Origin: Fuerstiella marisgermanici
Lineage (GTDB): Bacteria > Planctomycetota > Planctomycetia > Planctomycetales > Planctomycetaceae
NCBI RefSeq assembly: GCF_001983935.1
Contig: NZ_CP017641.1
Location: 1,302,001 to 1,366,000, forward strand
Length of the DNA: 64,000 nucleotides
Reading direction: 5' to 3'
The notes beneath the pieces were generated by a model. That model was not told the origin of the DNA. It worked only from the letters and a program-made list of their open reading frames with translations, and did no database searches. This document shows, one piece after another, positions 47,003 to 58,704 of this stretch (position 1 is the stretch's first letter; the number at the start of each line of letters is the position of its first letter). The position numbers were made by a program, and so were the translations under genes.

Positions 47003-47214
47003 TGCAGAAGCGTCAGTTGCGGCGGTATTTGGCGTTCAAGTGTTCAGAGCCATCAGTTTGTTGACATTCTGACTTCCGAACGGCTAGCATCCGACGTCCT
47101 TTCTTTGGTTTCTCACCAGGGTGAGAAGAATTTCGCCATCGACGGCCACGTGATGCTCGTATGCAGCCTTGCATTCGAGCTGATTTCCTTTCTGACTTCA
47201 TTCGCAGGATTGCC

Positions 47215-48120
47215 ATGCCAACATCAGTACCGGATCGAAAGTCCCGGCACGTGACTGGTCGCGTACCGCGAATGTCAGAAACGAAGTACGACATTGCCAC
47301 GTCCGCTCAAATTGCCGCCGCGCTAAGTTTGGGAGCTTTGGTGGCATTGTTGGTCGCAATTTGGCTAAGCAATCTGCTGCCCGATCAGCAGTCGATTCCG
47401 ATCCTGATGGAGACCGGCGACGGCGGTTGGGAAGATGGTGACCCGAACGAGAGTCTGGACGTCGAATCTCCTGAAGACCCCAGCGATGATCCTTCGCTGT
47501 CAAACGACCAGGAAGTCAGTCAGCTTGAACAGATCACCGAACAGGTGCTGAAGCTTTCGGACACTGCGGCATCGATGGTGCAGCCCAACAACTTCACCGA
47601 CCCCAGCGGCGGCGGAAACCCCGGCAGCGCCGAAGGCAGCGGCGGCCGCCCATATGGCAGCGGTGGACCGGGAAAAGGCGGCACCAAACGCGAAAATCGC
47701 TGGGTGGTCACGTTTGCGGACAAGGGAAATCTGAAGTCTTATGCTCGGCAGCTGGATCAGTTCAAAATTGAAATCGGCTGTGCGTTCCCGGATGGCCGCA
47801 TTTATTACCTCAGTAATATGTCGACGACTCCGGTTGTCCGAGAAGGTCGACAATCGGCGAAGGATCAGCGGTTATTTATGAACTGGACGGACGGTGACCG
47901 CATGAAGGCTGATGCTGAACTGCTGGCGGCAGCGGGTGTTCCCGATCCAACCAGCGGAAAGATTTTGCACTTCTACAACCCGAACACAGAACAACAGTTG
48001 GCTCGGCTTGAGCTGGACTACGCTAATAAGCCGATCGAGCAAATTCGCCGCACGTATTTTGAGGTGAGGCGAAAAGGTAATGAGTTTGAATTCGCAGTTG
48101 TGAATCAAAAGTTAAAGTAG
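47215..48120 (+). CDS. TonB/TolA-shaped membrane protein, unknown family
   Basis: The ATG at 47215 has AGGA just upstream; an in-frame start at 47161 and an ATG at 47272 are alternatives. The 301-aa protein has one transmembrane helix (about 33-55), then a long flexible acidic and Gly/Ser-rich linker (SPEDPSDDPSL, GGGNPGSAEGSGGRPY). A folded C-terminal domain of about 130 residues comes last (WVVTFADKGNLKSYARQL, IRRTYFEVRRKGNEFEFAV). That layout matches TonB/TolA-type force-transducing proteins, but I see no TonB signature in the end domain. It is the first gene of the run that includes ExbB and ExbD homologues, which supports an energy-transducing role. Confidence 0.7.
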   Translation: MPTSVPDRKSRHVTGRVPRMSETKYDIATSAQIAAALSLGALVALLVAIWLSNLLPDQQSIPILMETGDGGWEDGDPNESLDVESPEDPSDDPSLSNDQEVSQLEQITEQVLKLSDTAASMVQPNNFTDPSGGGNPGSAEGSGGRPYGSGGPGKGGTKRENRWVVTFADKGNLKSYARQLDQFKIEIGCAFPDGRIYYLSNMSTTPVVREGRQSAKDQRLFMNWTDGDRMKADAELLAAAGVPDPTSGKILHFYNPNTEQQLARLELDYANKPIEQIRRTYFEVRRKGNEFEFAVVNQKLK

Positions 48121-48180
48121 ACTTCGTTTATTAAATGGAATTTGGCTGCGGCGTGCCGCATTGGGTGCAGGAAACATTTC

Positions 48181-48903
48181 ATGCAATTCGTGAGTTCATT
48201 GGGATCGGCACCGGACGTGATGTTTGCCGCTGTTGACCTGTCGGGCATCCTGTATTGGTTTGGTCAAGGTATCTATCTTGCGATGGCACTGGCGGCAGGT
48301 TTTGGCCTGTACTGCATTGTGATCCTGATGCGGCGGATCAAACAGAAGAGTTTTCCCAGCCGGGAATCTGCCGCCGTGTTTCTGGATGAGATCGGTGACT
48401 CACTGGAAGAAGGCAAGTTCGAAAGTGTGGCCGATGCATGCGATCAACCGGAAGTGTGGGCAAAAGCAGTTCCGCAGCTGATCACCGTGGCGATCGAAAA
48501 TCGCAATAAGCCCATTCGGAAAATTAAGATCATCGTCGCCGAATTCTTCTCCCGTGAAATTCTGGCCGAATTCGACGCTCGGACTGGCTGGGTCAACACG
48601 GTGGTCAAGTCGGCTCCTATGTTAGGGCTGTTGGGAACGGTATCGGGGATGATCATGGCGTTCGGCAAGATCGCCGGCACCGGGGAATCCGGGGTGAAGC
48701 CTTCTGCACTCGCCGGCGACATTAGTTTCGCACTGTTCACCACGGCGGCAGGCCTTTCGATCGCAATTCCACTGGTAGTTTTGGGCAATATGACTCAAAC
48801 CCGCATCTCGAAATTGCAGGATTCTGTTCAGGAAAACATGGGGATATTTTTTGACGATCTCGAAGCCGCTCAGGTGCGAGGCGGCGACGTTGACGACGCG
48901 TAA
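48181..48903 (+). CDS. ExbB/TolQ/MotA-type proton channel
   Basis: Start at 48181, after CAGGAAA. The 240-aa inner-membrane protein has three transmembrane helices (about 31-50, 142-163, 180-202) in the ExbB/TolQ layout, with the diagnostic stretch VVKSAPMLGLLGTVSGMIMAFG. T153 and T187-T188 correspond to the threonines that line the ExbB proton path. The cytoplasmic loop between helices 1 and 2 is large. With an ExbD-type partner it should form a proton-driven rotary or force-generating complex. It lies 61 bases after the TonB/TolA-shaped gene and 150 bases before the ExbD gene. Confidence 0.92.
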   Translation: MQFVSSLGSAPDVMFAAVDLSGILYWFGQGIYLAMALAAGFGLYCIVILMRRIKQKSFPSRESAAVFLDEIGDSLEEGKFESVADACDQPEVWAKAVPQLITVAIENRNKPIRKIKIIVAEFFSREILAEFDARTGWVNTVVKSAPMLGLLGTVSGMIMAFGKIAGTGESGVKPSALAGDISFALFTTAAGLSIAIPLVVLGNMTQTRISKLQDSVQENMGIFFDDLEAAQVRGGDVDDA

Positions 48904-49052: not shown

Positions 49053-49496
49053 GTGCTGACAGACAGCGGCTTTGGCCGGAAGAAGAAAAAGGAAGAGGCC
49101 GATCTGGACATTACGCCCATGATCGACGTCGTGTTCCTTCTGCTGATCTTCTTCATGGTGACATCCACCATGCAGGCGACGCCTGATCGCGATATTCCGC
49201 CAGCCACGTCAGGCACAAATGCCAATGCGTCCGGCTTTTTCGACATCGTGGTGCTGGCCCCCGTATCGGCGGGATCCGAAGCCGAAGTGAAGATTGACGA
49301 TTCACTGGTGTCGCTTGAGCAGTTGAGGGCTGAGCTGATTCAGAAATCGGCTGGCCCGCCGTTAAAGGTGATGATCTACGCCGAACGTGATGTGCCGTCG
49401 GGCACGGTTAGCGAGGTCGAGGGTATCATCGGCGAAGTTGCGTCGGAACAGGAAATCGAGATCGAAATGAAATTCGCCGTACGCGACCGTAAGTAG
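49053..49496 (+). CDS. ExbD/TolR-type biopolymer transport protein
   Basis: Translation starts at a GTG with GCAGGAG upstream. The 147-aa protein has a basic cytoplasmic end, one helix carrying DITPMIDVVFLLLIFFMV, and a periplasmic domain. D25 in TPMIDV is at the same position as the proton-carrying Asp25 of E. coli ExbD. It is therefore the likely proton-conducting partner of the preceding ExbB-type channel. Its C-terminal EIEMKFAVRDRK is the family's terminal strand. Confidence 0.93.
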   Translation: MLTDSGFGRKKKKEEADLDITPMIDVVFLLLIFFMVTSTMQATPDRDIPPATSGTNANASGFFDIVVLAPVSAGSEAEVKIDDSLVSLEQLRAELIQKSAGPPLKVMIYAERDVPSGTVSEVEGIIGEVASEQEIEIEMKFAVRDRK

Positions 49497-49567: not shown

Positions 49568-51142
49568 ATGACAGACCTTGTTGACAGAACACTTGGCGAA
49601 TTTCGCCTGCTGAGGCATCTCGGCAGCGGCGGTATGGCCGATGTGTATCTGGCAGAACAAACGACGCTTAGTCGTCATGTGGCTGTCAAAATCATGAAGC
49701 CAGCTTTGATCGCCACGTCCGGCGAAGTCATGCTGGCTCGCTTCAAACAGGAAGCCATGATGGCGGCGGGGTTGAATCACCCCAACATTGTTCAGGTCTA
49801 CACGATTGGTGAAGAAGACGGTTTCCACTTTATCGCTCAGGAATTTGTACAAGGTCGCAACCTCGCCACCATTCTAAAATCCAAGGGCGTGCCGGATCTG
49901 GGTTCATCGCTGCACGTCATTCGCCAGGTGACGTCAGCGCTGAAGGCTGCCGGTCAGGCCGGGATCGTGCATCGCGATATCAAGCCGGAAAACATTCTGG
50001 TGACGAAAAAGGGCGACGTGAAGGTAGCCGATTTCGGGCTCGCTCAACTTCACAAGAGTGCTGAAGAAGGAAACCTGACGCGAGAGAACACCACGCTGGG
50101 GACTCCACTTTACATGAGTCCCGAACAGGTCAACGGTCGTGAACTTGACCCTCGATCGGACATCTATTCGTTCGGTGTCACGTGCTATCAACTGTTGTGC
50201 GGCAAGACGCCGTTCACCGGCACCACAGCGATGGGAATTGCCGTCCAGCATCTGAACACAATACCGCCGCCGCTGAAGGAGCAGAATCCGAAACTGCCCG
50301 ATGTCATTTGCCGCATGGTTCATCGCATGATGGCCAAACGCCGAGTGCTGCGGTACCAGTCAGCGGCGGACGTTTCGTCTGATCTGAAGAAACTGATCAC
50401 CTACTACAAGCAGGGCCGAAGCCTTGATCTGGTCAAGCTGCCAATTCTGGAAGAACTGGACAAAGCGGCGGCGGAAGCAAAAGCGGCCGCCGCCAACGAA
50501 TCGCAGCGTACAGCAGCGGCCAGACTTCAGAACGGCGGCGATCTGGAATTGCCGCCAGGGGCGGCTGCCGGTGCCACGATGGCTCTGCCTAGTGCTTCGT
50601 CACTTTCTGGAAGACAGGGCGGAGGTTCACAACGCAAATCTGGTGCAAAATCGCAGAAGGCGAAGCGGCCGACGCTGGTCACGGTTTCACTGCCTTCGTG
50701 GGAAGAAGAAGACGATGACGATTTCGCGCTGGGGCGCCCCGAGCCGGAATTTGAGGAAATGGACCTGACGCCGATGGTGGATGTGACTTTCCTGTTGCTG
50801 ATTTTCTTCATGATCACAGCGGCGTTTAACCTGCAAAAGAAAATCGACATGCCACCGGCCACTGCGGAAGAAGGTATGTCGACGTCTGTGCCCCAGCAGG
50901 AGAATTCATCGGTCGAAGCTGAGATTGATCGAGACAATCAGATCTATATTGGCGGGACGCAGGGCACGGCTTTCGACGAAATTGTGCGTCTGCTGGAATC
51001 TGAAAAGGCGGGCATTGATGACATTGAACTACGAGTCAAAATCGATCCGGAATCGACTCACGAAAAACGAATTCTGGTGGCAGACGCGGCGGCGAAAGCC
51101 GGCTTCGTCAAAGTGAAATCATTGATCATGGAATTGAATTAG
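49568..51142 (+). CDS. Ser/Thr protein kinase fused to an ExbD/TolR domain
   Basis: This 524-aa protein joins two modules that normally occur apart. Residues 1-285 form a complete Hanks-type kinase: glycine loop HLGSGGMADVY (18-27), K41, catalytic loop HRDIKPEN (135-142), DFG at 155-157, and the MSPEQ anchor at 183-187. An Ala-rich, then basic, then acidic linker (286-395) leads into an ExbD/TolR unit: MDLTPMVDVTFLLLIFFMIT (398-417), with the proton-site aspartate at D405, and a periplasmic domain to the end. So the kinase is cytoplasmic and tied to a proton-channel rotor subunit. It lies 71 bases after the first ExbD gene, and no PASTA domain is present. Confidence 0.93.
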   Translation: MTDLVDRTLGEFRLLRHLGSGGMADVYLAEQTTLSRHVAVKIMKPALIATSGEVMLARFKQEAMMAAGLNHPNIVQVYTIGEEDGFHFIAQEFVQGRNLATILKSKGVPDLGSSLHVIRQVTSALKAAGQAGIVHRDIKPENILVTKKGDVKVADFGLAQLHKSAEEGNLTRENTTLGTPLYMSPEQVNGRELDPRSDIYSFGVTCYQLLCGKTPFTGTTAMGIAVQHLNTIPPPLKEQNPKLPDVICRMVHRMMAKRRVLRYQSAADVSSDLKKLITYYKQGRSLDLVKLPILEELDKAAAEAKAAAANESQRTAAARLQNGGDLELPPGAAAGATMALPSASSLSGRQGGGSQRKSGAKSQKAKRPTLVTVSLPSWEEEDDDDFALGRPEPEFEEMDLTPMVDVTFLLLIFFMITAAFNLQKKIDMPPATAEEGMSTSVPQQENSSVEAEIDRDNQIYIGGTQGTAFDEIVRLLESEKAGIDDIELRVKIDPESTHEKRILVADAAAKAGFVKVKSLIMELN

Positions 51143-51300: not shown

Positions 51301-54300
51301 GTGGCCGGGCACTCAACCAGCCACCTCCTCATTTCGATCTCCTGCCTTATTGGGCAACGAAAACTCAACCGACCTATACATCAGAAACCGGGTGCCAACG
51401 TGCCGAGGGAAGACTACGACGAAATCGAAGAACTGGACGACTTTGAAGAAGTCGAGGAGATCGACGAATTCGAAGACGACTTCGAGGAAGTCGAAGAGGT
51501 CGAAGCCGTCGAGGAAGTAGACGACGTAAAAGACGTTAGCGAAGAAAAAGGCCGCCGACATCTTCGACGCGGTCGCATGGCCGAGTTCAGCGACAAGCTC
51601 GCTGGCGGTGCAGTTCGCCCCGGCGAAGAATCGGTCAAGAAGTCGCCGTTCGTGATGACCATGTGGATCACGCTTATCGGCCTGGCGCTGCTGGCGATCA
51701 TCTTCATGGTGATGATCATGTCAGAAGGCGAACGTCGCAGTTTTGATGCGGCGATGGCCAAGCTTAAAGAACAAGCCTTCCCTGAAGCTGAATCTCGTTT
51801 GATGACACACCTGCAGGCGTACGCCGGCGGCACATACGAAGACGAAGCCCGCATCGCGTTGCACAAGGCTCGCGTGCAAAAATACAGCAAGGCTACCAAC
51901 TATTCCGCTCCTCAGGTCAAAGACGGCGTGGCGGAACTGAACGACTTCATCCGCGTTTGCCGCGACCTGACCGGCTTTGCGGACGAAAAAGAGAACGTGC
52001 GACGATATGCGGAACGCCTGGCTCGAGTCGGCGCTCTTGTTGCCGAAGATCAGAAAAGCGCCGAAGCCCTTGAAAACAGCCGTGAGGCGACCGCGATTCT
52101 GGAAGCATATTACAAGCCGGAAGACGTGCCTTTGGCGCTCGCGAATGACCTGCGCGATCTGCAGCGAAAGGCGGAAGCTGCAATTTTAAAAGCCGGTAAA
52201 CTCAACGAGTTCATGACCGAGATCAAAACCAAGCTGGACGTCGGCGACACGTTCGGAGCCCTCGAATCCCGCCAGGCTTTGATCGATCGCTACGATTCGC
52301 TTACCGACGACGCCGACGTCTCAAAAATTCTGGCCGACATCCTGACAAAGGAAAAGGCCCAGACAACTCAGGAAGACCTTGGGCAGGACGCAGTCACCGA
52401 AGACATTCCCACGTCCGGCATTCCGGCCGCCACTCTGTCTTTGCGAACTCAGGCCACAGTCGATGCTGTTTCACGCGGAACCCGCGTCTTTGGTGTGGGC
52501 TTGGACAGTTGTTTTGGCCTCGACGCGGAAACCGGCGAGCCGCTTTGGAAACGAAGCGTGGGTAAGAATGCTCCCTTCGCGCCGGTAAGAGTCGACGCGT
52601 CGCAACCAGCGTTGCTCGTGTATCACACTGACTTAAACCAATTGATGTTGCTTGAACAGGCCAGCGGAAAGCTGATCTGGCGGCAAACGATTCCATCTCG
52701 ACCATCAGGCCCGCCGCTGATCTTTCAGCAGCAAATCTTTATCACGACAGCGTCGGGTGAACTGTGGCGTCTGTCAGTCGACAACGGAAAAGCGATTTCG
52801 CGAGTCGTCTTTAACCAACCGGTGGTCGGCCCGCCAACGCTGACTCGCGATCAGAAATACCTCGTGATCCCTGGCGACCAGTCAGTGGTCTACACGCTGA
52901 CGGTGAATCCGTTCGAATGCGTTGCGGTGTCGTATGTTGAGCACCGTTTGGGCAGCGTCGAAGCGCCGATGTTGACGCTCGGAAAGCTACTTCTGCTTTG
53001 CGATAACGACGAAGCCAACGTCGCTCGACTACGAGTGCTGGACATGAATGAAGGCACGGGCGAAGTCACGGTGCGTCGGACGACAGATCCGATCACGGTA
53101 CTTGGGCAAATTCGCGATCCGGGTCTTCTGCGTGGGACAGAATTGTTCATCCCTTCCACGCCTCAGCGAGTCACTGCATTCAGTGTGAATGATTCGCCCG
53201 ACGCCGATCCGCCCCTGTCTCGGATTGGTTCCAACCAACTGGAAAATGCATCTCCCGCGCCAGTGCACTTGCTGGCCGGACCACAGGGCCAGTTATGGAT
53301 GGCCAGCGAAGCGTTGCGGAAATTCCGGGTTCGCACGAATGCTGTAGAATTGGAAACCGCGTCGGCCGCCAACGGCGTGCATCGTCAGCCGATTCAGTTT
53401 CTGGATCAAAATGTGTACGTCACGACCAACGAGCCATATTCGTCGTCCGTCTTTTTCTCCAAAGTCGATCCGCAGGCGATGGAGGGCCGTTGGCGAACGG
53501 TTGTGGGAACTCATGTCGTCGCGGCTGGCCCAACTAACGAAAACCAATCACTGTTAGCAGTCAGCGATTTCGGTGATGTGTTCCGAGTTCCTATGCAGAC
53601 CATCAAAGCAGGTGGATTCGTGCTGGACCAGGTGAGTCGCCATTCGCTACCGGATAAGCTTAAGGAACAGGTCGGCGGGCTGGCTCTCAATGATGGCCGA
53701 CTGGCGTCATTCTGCGGCGGTGACGAACCGGCCGTGTGGACGTTCGCTCCGTCTGGTCAGCTGGAACAGCGCTGGCCTTTGAGTGGGGCGCCTCAAACGC
53801 AACCCGTTTCTCTTTCGGACGGGATCGTTGTGGCCATGTCAGGCCGTTTGCAAATGACGGCCAATAGCAGCGGAGCCCGCGTTCAGGATTTCCAGGCAGC
53901 TCAGGGCGTTGAAAAACAAACCAACTGGAAAAGCCTTGTTGCCCTCAACGAAAATCAGGTGTTGGCTATTACGTCCGACAACGTGGCGATGCGAGTTGAA
54001 TACCGAGCGTCGCCGCGACCACATTTGACTCATATCAGCGATACGCCGCTGCAGCAGTCTGTGGATTTACGGCCAACGTCTGCTGGCGATCTGTTGGTTG
54101 CCTGTACGTCAGAAGGAAACCTTCAGGCCATGGCCACCACAACGTTGGAGGTGCTTGGCGAAGCGTCGCTGGGGGCCGTCGCCAGTGCTTCGCCGTTTGT
54201 TTCCGGCGACCGCATCTTCGTCGAGGTGGCTCGCCGGGAATTGAAGGTCTTTGGACGATCTCCCGATCTGCCGGTCACCGCCACGATCCCGTTGAATGGA

Positions 54301-54516
54301 CGGTTTCTTGTTGGGCCACCGTTGGATGTCGGCGGCGGTTTTATCGCGTGTCTGTCTGACGGTGACGTGCTGTTGCTGGACAAAGACGGCAACCCCACGG
54401 ACAAGAAGATCTCCCTCGCCCAGGACGCTCAAAAGGGGCCGATCGCCGTTGGTTCGTCCATCATTGTGATTGGTCTGGATGGAAGCCTGTACTCAATAGA
54501 AGATCTGCTGAAGTAG
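51301..54516 (+). CDS. Membrane-anchored PQQ-like beta-propeller with acidic cytoplasmic tail
   Basis: The frame opens at a GTG at 51301; a second in-frame GTG at 51400 (VPREDYDE) is an equally plausible start. Ribosome sites are weak for both. After it comes a region of about 45 residues that is almost only Glu, Asp and Val (codons 37-80), then a basic patch and one transmembrane helix (117-140). The outer part has a helical segment (about 150-350, with KAEAAILKAGKLNE) and then a propeller with repeated PQQ-like strands: CFGLDAETGEPLWKRSVG, LLEQASGKLIWRQTIPSRP, LWRLSVDNGKAI, LLLDKDGNPTD. It probably reads or binds something outside the membrane. The next gene starts 1 base after its stop. 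Confidence 0.82.
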   Translation: MAGHSTSHLLISISCLIGQRKLNRPIHQKPGANVPREDYDEIEELDDFEEVEEIDEFEDDFEEVEEVEAVEEVDDVKDVSEEKGRRHLRRGRMAEFSDKLAGGAVRPGEESVKKSPFVMTMWITLIGLALLAIIFMVMIMSEGERRSFDAAMAKLKEQAFPEAESRLMTHLQAYAGGTYEDEARIALHKARVQKYSKATNYSAPQVKDGVAELNDFIRVCRDLTGFADEKENVRRYAERLARVGALVAEDQKSAEALENSREATAILEAYYKPEDVPLALANDLRDLQRKAEAAILKAGKLNEFMTEIKTKLDVGDTFGALESRQALIDRYDSLTDDADVSKILADILTKEKAQTTQEDLGQDAVTEDIPTSGIPAATLSLRTQATVDAVSRGTRVFGVGLDSCFGLDAETGEPLWKRSVGKNAPFAPVRVDASQPALLVYHTDLNQLMLLEQASGKLIWRQTIPSRPSGPPLIFQQQIFITTASGELWRLSVDNGKAISRVVFNQPVVGPPTLTRDQKYLVIPGDQSVVYTLTVNPFECVAVSYVEHRLGSVEAPMLTLGKLLLLCDNDEANVARLRVLDMNEGTGEVTVRRTTDPITVLGQIRDPGLLRGTELFIPSTPQRVTAFSVNDSPDADPPLSRIGSNQLENASPAPVHLLAGPQGQLWMASEALRKFRVRTNAVELETASAANGVHRQPIQFLDQNVYVTTNEPYSSSVFFSKVDPQAMEGRWRTVVGTHVVAAGPTNENQSLLAVSDFGDVFRVPMQTIKAGGFVLDQVSRHSLPDKLKEQVGGLALNDGRLASFCGGDEPAVWTFAPSGQLEQRWPLSGAPQTQPVSLSDGIVVAMSGRLQMTANSSGARVQDFQAAQGVEKQTNWKSLVALNENQVLAITSDNVAMRVEYRASPRPHLTHISDTPLQQSVDLRPTSAGDLLVACTSEGNLQAMATTTLEVLGEASLGAVASASPFVSGDRIFVEVARRELKVFGRSPDLPVTATIPLNGRFLVGPPLDVGGGFIACLSDGDVLLLDKDGNPTDKKISLAQDAQKGPIAVGSSIIVIGLDGSLYSIEDLLK

Positions 54517-54517
54517 A

Positions 54518-57100
54518 ATGGCTATTCACCTTCACACGCACCATCGCTTGGCATTGGTTTCGAATTCGCGGCTTCAGCTTTGTTTAGTTGTCGTCATCGC
54601 ACTGTTGTGCGCGCCACAGGGACGTGCTCAGGACGAAGAAAACCCTACGGCCGAACTTCCGAAGTTGGCCGATATGGAATTGCCAACCTTCGAAGAATTA
54701 ATGACGACGGAAGATCCGTTTGACTGGCTTGTTCTGAAAGACGATTCAGTATTAGTCACGGAGCCAATCTTCCCACGTCCCGATCCGTTGGTGGCACGGA
54801 TGAAGGAAAAGCAAGAACTGGAAGCGGAGACCGGCGGTTCAACGGAGCAACGTCAGGCAAGACGTGATCGTTTGCTGGAACTGCGAAAGATCAACGTTGT
54901 ACTGCTGGAAGACAGCAATTCCGATTACAGAATTCCGCTCTCACAGGTCGCGCAGATTATTTCCTTTCCACGGCTGATGCTAAGCCGGATCGATCAGCTG
55001 TTAGAAGCTGGTGAGATCCGCAAGGCTTATGAAATGCTGATGCAGGTCGAAATCCAGGCGCCGGGATGGGAATTGTCACAGCCTCGCTTCGACGCTCTGC
55101 TGTTGCGCGAAGCGAATATGAAGCTCGACGATAACGATACCATCGCGGCTCTGGCACTATTGGACGAACTAGCCATTCGAAATATTGAAAATCAGCAACT
55201 GCCGATAATGATGTCTCAAATTATCGACGGGCAGATTGAAGCCGCGATGGCCGATGAGGACATGGCGAAGACAAAATACTTCCTCAGCCGGCTAAGCCGC
55301 CATTTTCCTCAGCACCCTGTCGTTTCAAAATGGGAGCAGCAGCTTCAGAAAACCGCTCGGCAACTATTGCAGAAAACTCAGCAACTCACAGCCGCAGGCC
55401 AGCACGCCGAAGCTGCCATGGCGGCCAAAGATGCAGCCATGTTTTGGTCCGCTTCTGGAACGGAACTGGGCGGCAACGATCGAGTGCTTTACACGCAGGC
55501 CATGCTGCGGTATCAAATTTTGCGAGTTCCCGTGCGGCGGTTTTGTGGCGAACAGTTGATTTCGCCCGTCCCGCTGGAAGCCGACTTCCGGCATCAGGAA
55601 CTGACCACCGTTCCGCTTTTTGAACCGAGCGGTGCTGACGAACTCACGTATTTTCAGTCCAGCTATTTTGATCTGTGGGACCCACAGGATCTGGGCCGAG
55701 AAGTCGTGTTCAGCGTGCGTCAAACGAGACCCTATTGGCAGTCGCAGCCACTGCTGACGGCCAATCAGATTGCGGACACCCTGGCCGATTTGCTGGATCC
55801 GCTTCGGCCTACGTTCAATCCGCGATTGGCGTCGTTCGTGAAGGAATTCTCCGTCCATTCTCCGACGGAACTGCAGGTTAGCTTTCATCGCGTTCCGCTA
55901 AATCTGGAAGCATTGTTTCGGTTTCCAATTGTTGGCGTCCCGCCGGAGAAACAACCCGCTCCGCCCGGCACTGCCTCCGAAGTGTTGTCCACTCGGTTTA
56001 CGCTGGCAGACGAAACGCCGGATCGACGCCGCTATCTGCGCTCGGTACCGGAAGAAGACGGCCTGATCGCTCAGCGGTACCACGTGGCCGAGATTCAGGA
56101 GATCAAATACCCCGATCGCCATGCCGTTATCCAGGCATTCAATCGCAACGAGGTCGACGTGATTCCTCATCTTCGGCCGTGGGAAGTGGATGTCTTCAAA
56201 TCGCAGGATCAGTTCTTCGTCCAAAAGTACGCGATCCCGCAGACGCATGTGCTGGTGTTCAACCCGATGTCGTCGGCGGTTTCCAGTCCGCAACTGCGTC
56301 GAGCACTCTCGTTTGGGATTGATCGCGAAGGGCTGCTGAAGATTGTGCTGTTACGTGATGAAGAGATGAAATATGGAAGGCCGATCAGCGCGCCGTGGCA
56401 CACGGGCAGCTATGCCAACAGCCCGCTGGTCAAAGTGACTCCTTATGATCACTACCTTTCGTATCTGCTGAGGTTAGCGGCGCTGGAACAGCTTCGGATT
56501 CCGGACAAACAGAAGTTTGTCGCCGATGCCAAAGCCGCCGCGCTGGCCGCGAAGGAAGACTGGGACGAAGAAGTTTTCCGCCAGGACCATGCGGCCGAAA
56601 TCAACGCGGCGGGTGAACACGTTCAGTTACCAAAGCTACGAATGCTGTGCGACCCGGACGAAATGGCCATGCTGCCAGCCGAACAAATGGTCAAACGCTG
56701 GAATGCATTGGGCTTCGATGTCGAACTGATTTCTGCCGATCGTCAAGGCGAACCATTGGGCGACGAAGGTTGGGACATCATGTATCGTCGGATTCGGATG
56801 GAAGAACCGCTGCTGGACCTGTGGCCGGTTTTGTTGACGGACGATAAGTTCCAGGTGGAGCGTCTGGCCGGGTTTCCCGACTGGCTGCGTCAGGAATTGA
56901 TCAATCTGGATTACGCCACCAGCTTTATTGACGCTCAGCAACGGCTGCACACAATTCACCGTCACATTGCGGCGCAGGCATTTTTGATTCCGCTATGGGA
57001 AATTGACGACTTCATGGTGTTTCGCAACAACGTCAAAAACTTCCAGGGACGCCCGTTAAGCACCTATCATGGAGCCGAACGTTGGGTGGTGACACCATGA
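54518..57100 (+). CDS. Exported protein with SBP_bac_5 (peptide/nickel-type) module
   Basis: This 860-aa protein starts with a signal peptide (LQLCLVVVIALLCAPQGRAQ). Residues about 40-330 form a helical, TPR-like region (IRKAYEMLMQVEIQAPGW, AALALLDELAIRNIE). From about 390 the solute-binding protein family 5 fold is clear: LGREVVFSVRQTRPYW, LTANQIADTLADLLDP, IQAFNRNEVDVIPHL, SSPQLRRALSFGIDREGLL and WDIMYRRIRMEEPL. SBP family 5 normally feeds oligopeptides or nickel to ABC transporters, yet no permease or ATPase is nearby. It starts 1 base after the propeller gene and overlaps the next gene by 4 bases. Confidence 0.85.
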   Translation: MAIHLHTHHRLALVSNSRLQLCLVVVIALLCAPQGRAQDEENPTAELPKLADMELPTFEELMTTEDPFDWLVLKDDSVLVTEPIFPRPDPLVARMKEKQELEAETGGSTEQRQARRDRLLELRKINVVLLEDSNSDYRIPLSQVAQIISFPRLMLSRIDQLLEAGEIRKAYEMLMQVEIQAPGWELSQPRFDALLLREANMKLDDNDTIAALALLDELAIRNIENQQLPIMMSQIIDGQIEAAMADEDMAKTKYFLSRLSRHFPQHPVVSKWEQQLQKTARQLLQKTQQLTAAGQHAEAAMAAKDAAMFWSASGTELGGNDRVLYTQAMLRYQILRVPVRRFCGEQLISPVPLEADFRHQELTTVPLFEPSGADELTYFQSSYFDLWDPQDLGREVVFSVRQTRPYWQSQPLLTANQIADTLADLLDPLRPTFNPRLASFVKEFSVHSPTELQVSFHRVPLNLEALFRFPIVGVPPEKQPAPPGTASEVLSTRFTLADETPDRRRYLRSVPEEDGLIAQRYHVAEIQEIKYPDRHAVIQAFNRNEVDVIPHLRPWEVDVFKSQDQFFVQKYAIPQTHVLVFNPMSSAVSSPQLRRALSFGIDREGLLKIVLLRDEEMKYGRPISAPWHTGSYANSPLVKVTPYDHYLSYLLRLAALEQLRIPDKQKFVADAKAAALAAKEDWDEEVFRQDHAAEINAAGEHVQLPKLRMLCDPDEMAMLPAEQMVKRWNALGFDVELISADRQGEPLGDEGWDIMYRRIRMEEPLLDLWPVLLTDDKFQVERLAGFPDWLRQELINLDYATSFIDAQQRLHTIHRHIAAQAFLIPLWEIDDFMVFRNNVKNFQGRPLSTYHGAERWVVTP

Positions 57101-58704
57101 TGCGGATAACTAATTACATCGCTTTTGCGGCGTTTTGCCTGCATGTCGCCTGTTCGGTTGCACACGGTCAGGAAGCTCCGGCGCCCGTCGCTGAGGCATC
57201 TGCCGAACCGTCAGCCGCGACTCCGGCAGAAGAACCTTCATCTGAAGACACTGCGACGCCCGCGCCGAAAAAGCCAGCGGAACCGCCGGAAGAAATTCTC
57301 TTCAAGAACCTGCCGTACACAGTCAACGTGTCAGTCGCGATTGATAATCGCAGCCTGCCCGATCAGGCCGATCGAGATGACATGATCATGTCGATTCGCC
57401 ATGCAATCGCGCGGATGTATGGGCGCATGTGGGTCGCGGATGTGCAGGCCAACGACTGGCTGATTCCGGCCACACGGCGGCATCTGGAATGGCTAACTGA
57501 AGGCGAAATGCTGGACCGCTATCCGGAACAAGAATACCACAAGGCGTTTCTGGTGACGGTCGAGGCCTCCGGTTCGTCGTTTAACATCAGTTGCCGCGAA
57601 TACGATTCACGCATTCAGGAACTGACCCCCGTCACCACGCGAACGACTCACGACATTCGTTCGATTGCGTCGGTCGCTACTCAGCTGGTGCGTGACTCCT
57701 TTCGTCCGTGCGTGCTGTACCAGCGCATGTTCGTCGACGAAACGGGTCGCAACTTTATGGAAATGCAGGTTCAGGCGGGTGAGATCCCGCCGCCGGATTC
57801 GTCGGCCGAGCAAGTGGTAGAAGAGGACGTCCTGCGACCTTTCGTTCGCCAGATGAATCGTCGAGAACCAGAGAAGCTGGACAAGCTGCTGCGGCTTGAT
57901 CTGTCTTACATCCGAGTCATGGCGGTCGACCGTGAGAATGCTCCCGGCCTGCTGAAGGGATACTTCATTACACACTCACCCTATTCATTGTTTGGCGGAA
58001 AAGGGCGAGCGATCCAGCATCTTGCGGTTCGCCAGCGACCGTCAGCCGATCAAAGCAAAGTGCGGTTGGTGTTGCAGGGCCGGCCGGACAAGCCGCTGGT
58101 GTCGCACCGGCTTGCGCTCGCATATCAATTGAACTGGAATGATCCGGAAGACGGGCCTCAAACAAAACTTGTTAGCGATCGAAACGGCGAAGTCGTCATC
58201 CACACGCATCCGGGCCATCCCACGTTCTGGATCCGAGTTTACAGCGGCGCGTCTTTGCTCGCTCGAGTCCCATACGCACCTGGGCTGATCCCCAGCGACA
58301 CGATCGAATTACCAGACGATTCTATTCGGCTGGCGGTGGAAGGTGAGATGCAATTGCTGGCCGACGAACTGATCGACGCCATCGCGTTGCGAGCCGTACT
58401 GTTGGCGCGAGCCCGAAAGGCAGCTGAAGCTGGTGATGAGTCGCAGCTTGAAGCCCTGTTCACACGCTACGACGAAGTCTCCGCGAAGGACTACTTTCTG
58501 GAAAAGGTGAATAATGTCCGTATTCCGGCAATCCGAGAAGCCAACGAAAGGCGGCTGGGCACAAGTCGCATCCGGCAACTCTGTGACGGACTGCAGTCAA
58601 CTGTTGACCTGTTCTTCAGTGATGAAAAACGTAACGAACGTCAGATCGAAATACAGCAGTTGAAAGCGATGGCTGCCGCCAAAGCCAAGGCGGCCGGAAA
58701 CTAA
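57097..58704 (+). CDS. Exported protein of unknown family, last gene of the ExbB/ExbD-kinase run
   Basis: The ATG at 57097 overlaps the previous stop (ATGA), so translation is coupled; an in-frame GTG at 57082 is less likely. The 535-aa protein has a signal peptide (AFAAFCLHVACSVAHGQ), then an Ala/Pro/Glu-rich linker. The folded part begins with NLPYTVNVSVAIDNRSLPD and includes IRVMAVDRENAPGLLKGYF, VRLVLQGRPDKPLVSHRLA and GHPTFWIRVYSGASLLA. A charged helical end (RARKAAEAGDESQLEALFTRYDE) and a Lys/Ala tail close it. I do not recognise a family. Because it is coupled to the SBP gene, it should work with that protein or with the propeller. Confidence 0.8.
   Translation: MMRITNYIAFAAFCLHVACSVAHGQEAPAPVAEASAEPSAATPAEEPSSEDTATPAPKKPAEPPEEILFKNLPYTVNVSVAIDNRSLPDQADRDDMIMSIRHAIARMYGRMWVADVQANDWLIPATRRHLEWLTEGEMLDRYPEQEYHKAFLVTVEASGSSFNISCREYDSRIQELTPVTTRTTHDIRSIASVATQLVRDSFRPCVLYQRMFVDETGRNFMEMQVQAGEIPPPDSSAEQVVEEDVLRPFVRQMNRREPEKLDKLLRLDLSYIRVMAVDRENAPGLLKGYFITHSPYSLFGGKGRAIQHLAVRQRPSADQSKVRLVLQGRPDKPLVSHRLALAYQLNWNDPEDGPQTKLVSDRNGEVVIHTHPGHPTFWIRVYSGASLLARVPYAPGLIPSDTIELPDDSIRLAVEGEMQLLADELIDAIALRAVLLARARKAAEAGDESQLEALFTRYDEVSAKDYFLEKVNNVRIPAIREANERRLGTSRIRQLCDGLQSTVDLFFSDEKRNERQIEIQQLKAMAAAKAKAAGN

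What the first reader, a model, noticed from the sequence alone, without database searches (positions are those of the whole stretch)
49568..51142. Ser/Thr kinase fused to an ExbD/TolR proton-channel subunit
One frame joins a complete Hanks-type kinase (K41, HRD 135-137, DFG 155-157 all present) to an ExbD/TolR unit whose proton-site aspartate D405 is intact. A kinase tied to a proton-driven rotor subunit suggests that proton flow or stator engagement could control phosphorylation, or the reverse. I know of no described system with this fusion. The frame is continuous, with no sign of an assembly join.
Basis: partly seen in the sequence, partly recalled or inferred. Interest (0 to 1): 0.88.

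Follow-up and report, generated by a model that had tools for sequence, protein, structure and literature searches.

The report
Kinase fused to proton-motor subunit
In one group of planctomycete bacteria a protein-phosphorylating enzyme has been welded onto a part of a small proton-driven membrane motor, taking the place of a zinc-binding tag that related bacteria carry there, so the motor may have its own built-in signalling switch.

Summary
Window 49568-51142 (+) encodes one 524-aa protein: a PknB/StkP-like kinase (PF00069, 13-258) plus a complete ExbD unit (PF02472, 396-517). K41, E62, HRD, DFG and D405 are invariant in 25 of 25 aligned homologues. It is no assembly join: 28 of 170 genomes of its family show the full-length fusion, in 6 of 58 genera. 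One relative is split in the linker (L062).

The gene is the fourth of a conserved cassette: UP, ExbB, ExbD1, kinase-ExbD2, beta-propeller, SBP_bac_5, and a seventh gene. In the kinase-free cassettes examined, ExbD2 carries a four-cysteine zinc ribbon (40 of 40; kinase cassettes 0 of 28), and Pfam finds FHA on the propeller partner in 26 of 38, against 0 of 28. The cassette tree needs one kinase gain (support 86); the kinase tree does not resolve the most distant copy.

Best reading: a motor-tethered kinase that regulates, or reports on, this ExbBD-type complex. An unconserved, apparently disordered 88-163-residue linker suggests a tether, not a lever. My paper searches surfaced no description. 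New variant of a known kind.

The parts
49568..51142 (+). kinase-ExbD2 fusion (524 aa): kinase residues 13-258, linker about 286-398, ExbD with TM helix 401-425 and Asp405, periplasmic domain to 524
49568..50422 (+). PknB/StkP-like Ser/Thr kinase part (residues 1-285); K41, E62, HRD 135-137, N142, DFG 155-157, loop T176 invariant
   Evidence: nearest solved relatives StkP and PknB
50423..50761 (+). linker of 113 residues (19 acidic, 13 basic), low-confidence in the model
50762..51139 (+). ExbD2 unit (residues 399-524): D399-LTPMV-D405, one TM helix, periplasmic domain
49053..49496 (+). ExbD1 (PF02472), separate gene, with its own D.TPMID motif
   Evidence: motif in relatives
48142..48903 (+). 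ExbB/TolQ (PF01618); TTG at 48142, ATG at 48181 is the likelier start
47161..48120 (+). UP: one TM helix, acidic/Gly-rich linker, folded C-terminal alpha/beta domain; no Pfam family; TonB-like layout only; start unsure (relatives begin later)
   Evidence: no significant PDB fold match
51301..54516 (+). membrane-anchored beta-propeller protein (PQQ_2); acidic N-terminus, no FHA here; exact start unsure
54518..57100 (+). secreted-looking protein with SBP_bac_5 domain
57082..58704 (+). seventh gene, secreted-looking 540-aa protein; homologues beside the cassette in sister genera and in the four class-level outgroup loci

Best explanation
The protein is the second ExbD subunit of an ExbB-ExbD1-ExbD2 proton-driven membrane motor, carrying a kinase with complete catalytic motifs on its cytoplasmic N-terminus. 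SHOWN from sequence: domains, catalytic residues, ion-site Asp, cassette, clade distribution, and the exchange of zinc ribbon for kinase with no FHA on the partner. INFERRED: ExbD topology puts the kinase in the cytoplasm, where ATP is. INFERRED: the kinase took the place of a cytoplasmic module of this subunit, so it most likely controls, or reports on, assembly and engagement of this motor by phosphorylating itself and nearby proteins. INFERRED: because the linker is long and apparently disordered, the ExbD part is a tether that sets position and copy number (one or two kinases per motor axle, more where motors cluster), so activation is by proximity (trans-autophosphorylation of an RD kinase), not by torque passed along the chain.
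For: Domain matches and invariant residues. Cassette order constant in the fused loci wherever the stretch reaches. Homologous cassettes in sister genera and in four class-level outgroup genomes carry a zinc ribbon on the same ExbD2: 40 of 40, kinase cassettes 0 of 28. FHA on the propeller protein: Pfam 26 of 38 kinase-free N-termini scanned, 0 of 28 in kinase cassettes; my own profile, built from the kinase-free rows themselves, gave 27 of 40 and 0 of 28. Kinase state needs 1 change on the concatenated cassette tree, SH-aLRT 86. Linker 88-163 residues, low pLDDT, not conserved. The nearest kinases are unfused PknB-like paralogues found in the other family and class genomes searched, so the module has a plausible donor. 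2 of 25 fusions have no Met in the 120 residues before the ExbD motif, so a separate ExbD2 from an internal ATG there cannot be general.
Against: No cytoplasmic Ser/Thr in ExbB, ExbD1 or the juxtamembrane propeller segment is conserved in the kinase clade (80% or more) and rare outside it; the only two such sites (ExbD1 S60, ExbD2 S496) lie on the periplasmic side by ExbD topology. So no partner substrate is visible. The FHA domains of sister cassettes lack the usual pThr-pocket Ser (0 of 25) and mostly the Arg (7 of 25) by my reading of the alignment (the motif is recalled), which weakens the idea that the complex was already phospho-controlled. 10 zinc-ribbon cassettes with a full-length propeller frame show no FHA, so its absence is not tied to the kinase. 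One split relative (L062). In the kinase tree the G021 fusion falls apart from the other 28. No expression, interaction or activity data.
Confidence: 0.5

Rival explanations
1. Receptor-kinase reading: signal flows outside-in. The ExbD periplasmic domain, with the propeller, SBP and UP proteins, senses envelope state or motor engagement, and the kinase is the output to distant cytoplasmic targets, as in PASTA-type PknB/StkP.
For: A cytoplasmic kinase with a single TM helix and a periplasmic domain is common among planctomycete membrane kinases (PMC11032199, passages). Nearest solved kinases are StkP and PknB. Periplasmic ExbD2 residue S496 is invariant in the clade and rare outside it.
Against: The periplasmic ExbD domain is also present in the kinase-free cassettes, so no new sensor domain came with the kinase; the disordered linker makes signal passage indirect.
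Confidence: 0.3
2. Direct electromechanical coupling: proton passage at D405 or axle rotation switches the kinase on or off, a proton-motive-force-gated kinase.
For: D405 and the kinase catalytic residues are conserved together in one chain in 25 of 25 rows.
Against: Linker of 88-163 unconserved residues with low pLDDT. Nothing here tests coupling.
Confidence: 0.12
3. Passive fusion: the kinase merely uses ExbD2 as a membrane anchor and the two parts work independently.
For: One relative (L062) has kinase and ExbD2 in separate frames; low-confidence linker; no partner substrate site found.
Against: The exchange with the zinc ribbon at exactly this position and retention in 6 genera suggest a role at the motor; L062 is one MAG whose close relatives L050 and L052 are fused.
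Confidence: 0.08

Closest known systems
Myxococcus xanthus Agl-Glt / Agl-Nfs machinery (AglR, AglQ, AglS with GltG/NfsG)
   Same: One TolQ/ExbB homologue with two TolR/ExbD homologues, and, in sister genera of the window, an FHA domain on a membrane partner; GltG is listed with FHA PF00498 and TonB PF03544, AglQ and AglS with PF02472 (PMC3169522, passages); an aglQ D28N mutant is described as paralysed and unable to sporulate (PMC3858216, passages).
   Different: No kinase in an Agl subunit in the passages seen; here the FHA (where present) sits on a beta-propeller protein, no TonB domain was found on UP, and the zinc ribbon or kinase is on the ExbD itself.
TonB-ExbB-ExbD and Tol-Pal (TolQ-TolR) 5:2 motors
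   Same: ExbB/TolQ and ExbD/TolR families, D.TP.(V/I)D motif and single TM helix.
   Different: Two ExbD genes, large cytoplasmic modules on ExbD2, propeller and SBP partners; the five ExbD/TolR equivalog models listed all fall short of their NCBIfam cut-offs.
PknB/StkP-type membrane Ser/Thr kinases
   Same: Kinase fold family and catalytic motifs; best solved-structure matches.
   Different: No PASTA match in Pfam; PknB_PASTA_kin 317.5 bits against a cut-off of 450; the extracytoplasmic part is an ExbD with an ion-site Asp.
Planctomycete Ser/Thr kinases with accessory domains (PMC11032199)
   Same: Membrane-spanning kinases with a cytoplasmic kinase and periplasmic partner domains; 105 accessory domains reported (passages).
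   Different: ExbD does not occur in its searched text (0 occurrences), nor does Fuerstiella; its supplementary architecture tables could not be read, so the fusion may be listed there.

Membership tests
ExbD/TolR (PF02472) | profile match above the curated cut-off | tested here: met
   70.7 bits against 25.4, residues 396-517
ExbD/TolR (PF02472) | ion-site Asp in the single TM helix | tested here: met
   D405 invariant in 25 of 25, inside modelled helix 401-425, though pLDDT there is low; equivalence to E. coli ExbD D25 is recalled
ExbD/TolR (PF02472) | works with an ExbB/TolQ partner | tested here: inconclusive
   exbB is two genes upstream and conserved there; complex formation not testable here
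Hanks-type (PknB-like) kinase | VAIK-type Lys, C-helix Glu, HRD, catalytic-loop Asn, DFG | tested here: met
   K41, E62, H135-D137, N142, D155-G157 invariant in 25 of 25
Hanks-type (PknB-like) kinase | kinase activity | not testable with these tools
   needs protein
PASTA kinase (PknB_PASTA_kin, NF033483) | curated score cut-off | tested here: not met
   317.5 against 450 bits
Agl-Glt machinery | one TolQ/ExbB plus two TolR/ExbD | tested here: met
Agl-Glt machinery | GltG-type TM protein with FHA plus TonB domains | tested here: not met
   no FHA in the window cassette, no Pfam family on UP
Agl-Glt machinery | further Glt envelope partners (GltA-F, GltH and others) | not tested
   not searched
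TonB / TolA energy transducer (for UP) | TonB/TolA C-terminal domain | tested here: not met
   0 Pfam families at E 0.001; 0 PDB fold matches at E 0.001 (model mean pLDDT 65.6, so a weak test)

The most novel reading that the evidence does not exclude
A proton-motive-force- or engagement-gated Ser/Thr kinase built into the axle of a 5:2 ion-driven motor, evolved by swapping the module on the motor's cytoplasmic face (zinc ribbon out, kinase in) while the partner lacks the FHA module: the same motor chassis wired to different signalling inputs in sister genera.
Probability: 0.15. Interest if true: 0.85.

Novelty: new variant of a known kind. Interest (0 to 1): 0.62.

Why it matters
ExbBD/TolQR/MotAB-type motors are usually discussed as machines whose control lies in other proteins. 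Here a signalling enzyme is covalently part of the axle subunit, and a natural series (zinc ribbon plus FHA, zinc ribbon alone, kinase) exists at one locus in one bacterial family. That makes two open questions testable in one system: how the cytoplasmic face of a 5:2 motor is controlled, and whether motor state can be read out as phosphorylation. It also draws attention to a conserved planctomycete envelope cassette for which my few paper searches found no description.

Tried and rejected
Assembly join or frameshift: rejected, 28 full-length fusions in 170 family genomes. Chance ORF: rejected. Homologues always split: false for the clade; one split case seen (L062). ExbD2 also made from an internal start: not general, 2 of 25 have no Met in the 120 residues before the ExbD motif. 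UP as a TonB/TolA relative: not supported by Pfam or Foldseek (best E 0.028, GyrB, not meaningful).

Other phyla were not searched by profile. The one scan of genome contigs finds close relatives only: 25 loci, 23 fused, 1 split, 1 kinase without ExbD. A listing of ExbD matches in 150 family genomes was capped too and was used only for leads.

Single origin on the kinase tree: G021's kinase falls apart from the other 28; holding all 29 together is not rejected (p-AU 0.308), and its N-lobe frame is broken, so a second fusion is not excluded. Partner phospho-sites special to the clade: none on the cytoplasmic side. The separate 528-aa ExbD frame in G044 (L163) has no kinase match.

Literature: searches aimed at a kinase-ExbD fusion (on planctomycete kinase architectures gave 0 papers) surfaced none; only 20 of 135 papers were listed, all 20 with 0 occurrences of ExbD. 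The papers holding all terms (PMC2754498, PMC3222651) were opened for passages and mention ExbD and kinases as separate proteins. Searches were about Agl-Glt (51: 0 papers). Supplements could not be read. Absence from print is not claimed beyond this.

Rows dropped before counts: 79 stretches went in; L145-L148 (second copies of contigs already in), L168 and L170 were left out beforehand. L129, L131, L135, L136, L172, L178 and L182 had no ExbD2 in the stretch taken, leaving 72: 28 with kinase, 40 with ribbon and 4 set aside (L062 the split fusion; L152 and L153 show ExbD1 only, on short contigs; L163 unrelated). Of the 13 ribbon rows without FHA, 3 have no full-length propeller frame. Pfam scans took 38 of the 40 (L150 and L176 have no propeller) and 28 of 28, stretches from the start of the frame to about 140 residues past the profile start (300 codons for the window). 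In one search, L139, L157 and L183 and rows with a missing gene or short propeller were left out (58 kept). Recalled, from no call: E. coli ExbD D25, FHA pocket residues, RD-kinase loop activation, ExbD topology.

Full report
WHAT IS THERE. Window 49568-51142 (+) is one open frame of 524 aa. Pfam places a protein kinase at 13-258 (E 1.1e-48) and ExbD/TolR at 396-517 (E 1.6e-19). The window lies in a one-contig 8.92 Mb genome; several contigs of same-genus genomes bear the name Fuerstiella. The genome has eight ExbD matches; the fused one has a frame of 530 codons stop to stop, the others 145-206.

CONSERVATION. A scan of genome contigs with the protein gave 25 loci, all with planctomycete record titles: in 23 the kinase and ExbD are in one frame, in one (L062) they are in two overlapping frames, and one (L063) is a kinase without ExbD. 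In the 25-row alignment A1 (window, the 23 loci and L018) K41, E62, HRD135-137, N142, DFG155-157, T176 and D405 are invariant, while the linker hardly aligns. A profile of A1 against the 170 genomes of the family found full-length matches in 28: genera g1 (8 of 8 genomes), g60 (4 of 4), g6 (1 of 1), g43 (3 of 3), g15 (1 of 1) and g66 (11 of 18). Five more g66 genomes had partial matches (G153, G139, G132, G176, G177; G139 holds the split L062, G132 starts at a contig end), and two (G157, G175) showed only weaker, kinase-level best scores. That is 6 of 58 genera. Against 392 genomes drawn over the phylum, only G000 and G051 covered both parts among the matches listed, a capped list with three candidates scored per genome.

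SURROUNDINGS. The fused gene is the fourth of a cassette: UP (47161), ExbB (48142), ExbD1 (49053), fusion, beta-propeller protein (51301), SBP_bac_5 protein (54518), with a seventh gene at 57082-58704 whose homologues also lie beside the cassette in other genera. The order is the same in the fused loci wherever the stretch reaches, with an extra UP-like gene in L045, L046 and L055. UP matches in 162 of 170 family genomes, so at least UP is near-universal in the family, though in some genera it stands apart from the ExbBD genes (L129, L131, L135, L136, L182). The SBP profile matched 27 of 294 phylum genomes, best within the family.

THE EXCHANGE. Reading the same cassette in other genera gave the main result. 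There ExbD2 has no kinase but a four-cysteine zinc ribbon of the form CxxC...CxxC in its N-terminal part, and the propeller protein often begins with an FHA domain. Counted over the cassettes taken: ribbon pattern in 40 of 40 kinase-free ExbD2 and 0 of 28 kinase-bearing ones. For FHA, Pfam PF00498 matches 26 of 38 kinase-free propeller N-termini and 0 of 28 from kinase cassettes at E 0.01; my own profile gave 27 of 40 and 0 of 28, but was built from the kinase-free rows themselves. The ribbon is a pattern match; Pfam zinc-ribbon models hit the two ExbD2 scanned only below their cut-offs. Four class-level outgroup genomes (L164-L167) also have the ribbon, without FHA. On a tree of UP, ExbB, ExbD1 and propeller (58 rows, 1589 columns) the kinase state needs one change (branch support 86, not among the starred branches) and FHA four; the nearest kinase-free row (G040) has both ribbon and FHA. 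So a kinase most likely replaced the ribbon once, and FHA is absent from the whole kinase clade; FHA is also absent from 10 ribbon cassettes with a full-length propeller, so the two losses are not strictly linked. The kinase tree groups 28 of 29 fused kinases with support 100 among unfused paralogues; the G021 copy falls elsewhere on a long branch, but one clade is not rejected (p-AU 0.308) and its N-lobe frame is broken in that MAG. A second, independent fusion in G021 is therefore not excluded.

HOW IT MAY WORK. The ExbD part keeps its ion-site motif and a modelled helix at 401-425; kinase core and periplasmic domain are modelled with fair confidence, the linker (pLDDT about 26-43) and activation segment are not (mean pLDDT 69.4, TM region mostly below 50, so the model says nothing on packing). 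By ExbD topology (established knowledge) the kinase is cytoplasmic. The linker is 88-163 residues long and unconserved, so torque or a helix shift in ExbD is unlikely to reach the kinase directly; a tether that sets location and copy number is the simpler reading. In a 5:2 motor with two different ExbD proteins the axle could be ExbD1:ExbD2 (one kinase) or ExbD2:ExbD2 (two side by side); for AglQ and AglS the same question is called open in PMC9389320 (passages). A search for Ser/Thr conserved only in the kinase clade found none on the cytoplasmic side of ExbB, ExbD1 or the juxtamembrane propeller segment, so no substrate is proposed.

COMPARISON. The closest described layout that I know is the Agl-Glt machinery: one TolQ-like and two TolR-like proteins and a membrane partner with an FHA domain (PMC3169522, passages). 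The cassette here is not filed as a member: the FHA/TonB partner is missing, and no TonB domain was found on UP. FHA domains of sister cassettes lack the usual pocket Ser in 25 of 25 and have the Arg in 7 of 25 (my reading; motif recalled), so they may bind something other than phosphothreonine. A survey of planctomycete kinases reports 105 accessory domains; ExbD does not occur in its searched text, and its supplements were not readable (PMC11032199, passages).

VERDICT. Observation confirmed; interpretation partly supported. The fusion is real, stable and has intact motifs on both sides, with an evolutionary history as a domain exchange on a motor subunit. What the kinase does to the motor, or the motor to the kinase, is open.

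Noticed in passing
window 57082-58704: Seventh gene of the cassette: secreted-looking protein, family not determined, start overlapping the SBP gene end; homologues lie beside the cassette in sister genera and the four outgroup loci.
   Followed up: partly
L126:4573-8268 and the other FHA-bearing loci: FHA domain on the N-terminus of the propeller protein; usual pThr-pocket Ser missing in 25 of 25 aligned and Arg missing in 18 of 25, so possibly a non-canonical FHA.
   Followed up: partly
L166:7333-10728, L167:4856-8266: In class-level outgroups the propeller protein begins with a different, helical-looking N-terminal stretch instead of FHA.
   Followed up: no
L062:6498-8062: Kinase and ExbD2 in two overlapping frames that part in the linker; close relatives L050 and L052 are fused. 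MAG error or a recent split.
   Followed up: partly
L144:9664-11256 (G021): The most distant fusion has a frame break inside the kinase N-lobe in this MAG; the other cassette genes match normally.
   Followed up: partly
L045:2920-5028, L046:3143-5125, L055:3101-5054: A second, diverged UP-like gene next to UP (27-31% identical to the window UP).
   Followed up: no
L129, L131, L135, L136, L182: UP found without the other cassette genes in the stretch taken, so the cassette is dispersed in those genomes.
   Followed up: no
L169 and L183: Cassettes with ExbB-ExbD1-ExbD2 on the strand opposite to UP and the propeller gene.
   Followed up: no
G000:C1:4649279-4650125 and 6529897-6530814 (L004, L007, L006, L008): The same genome has two more loci with paired ExbD genes, so paired-ExbD motors may be common here.
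   Followed up: no
G000:C1:1750099-1750932 (L184) and the kinases L019-L038: PknB-like kinases about 50-67% identical to the fused one, without an ExbD match, in other genera of the family and class; likely related to the donor of the fused kinase.
   Followed up: partly
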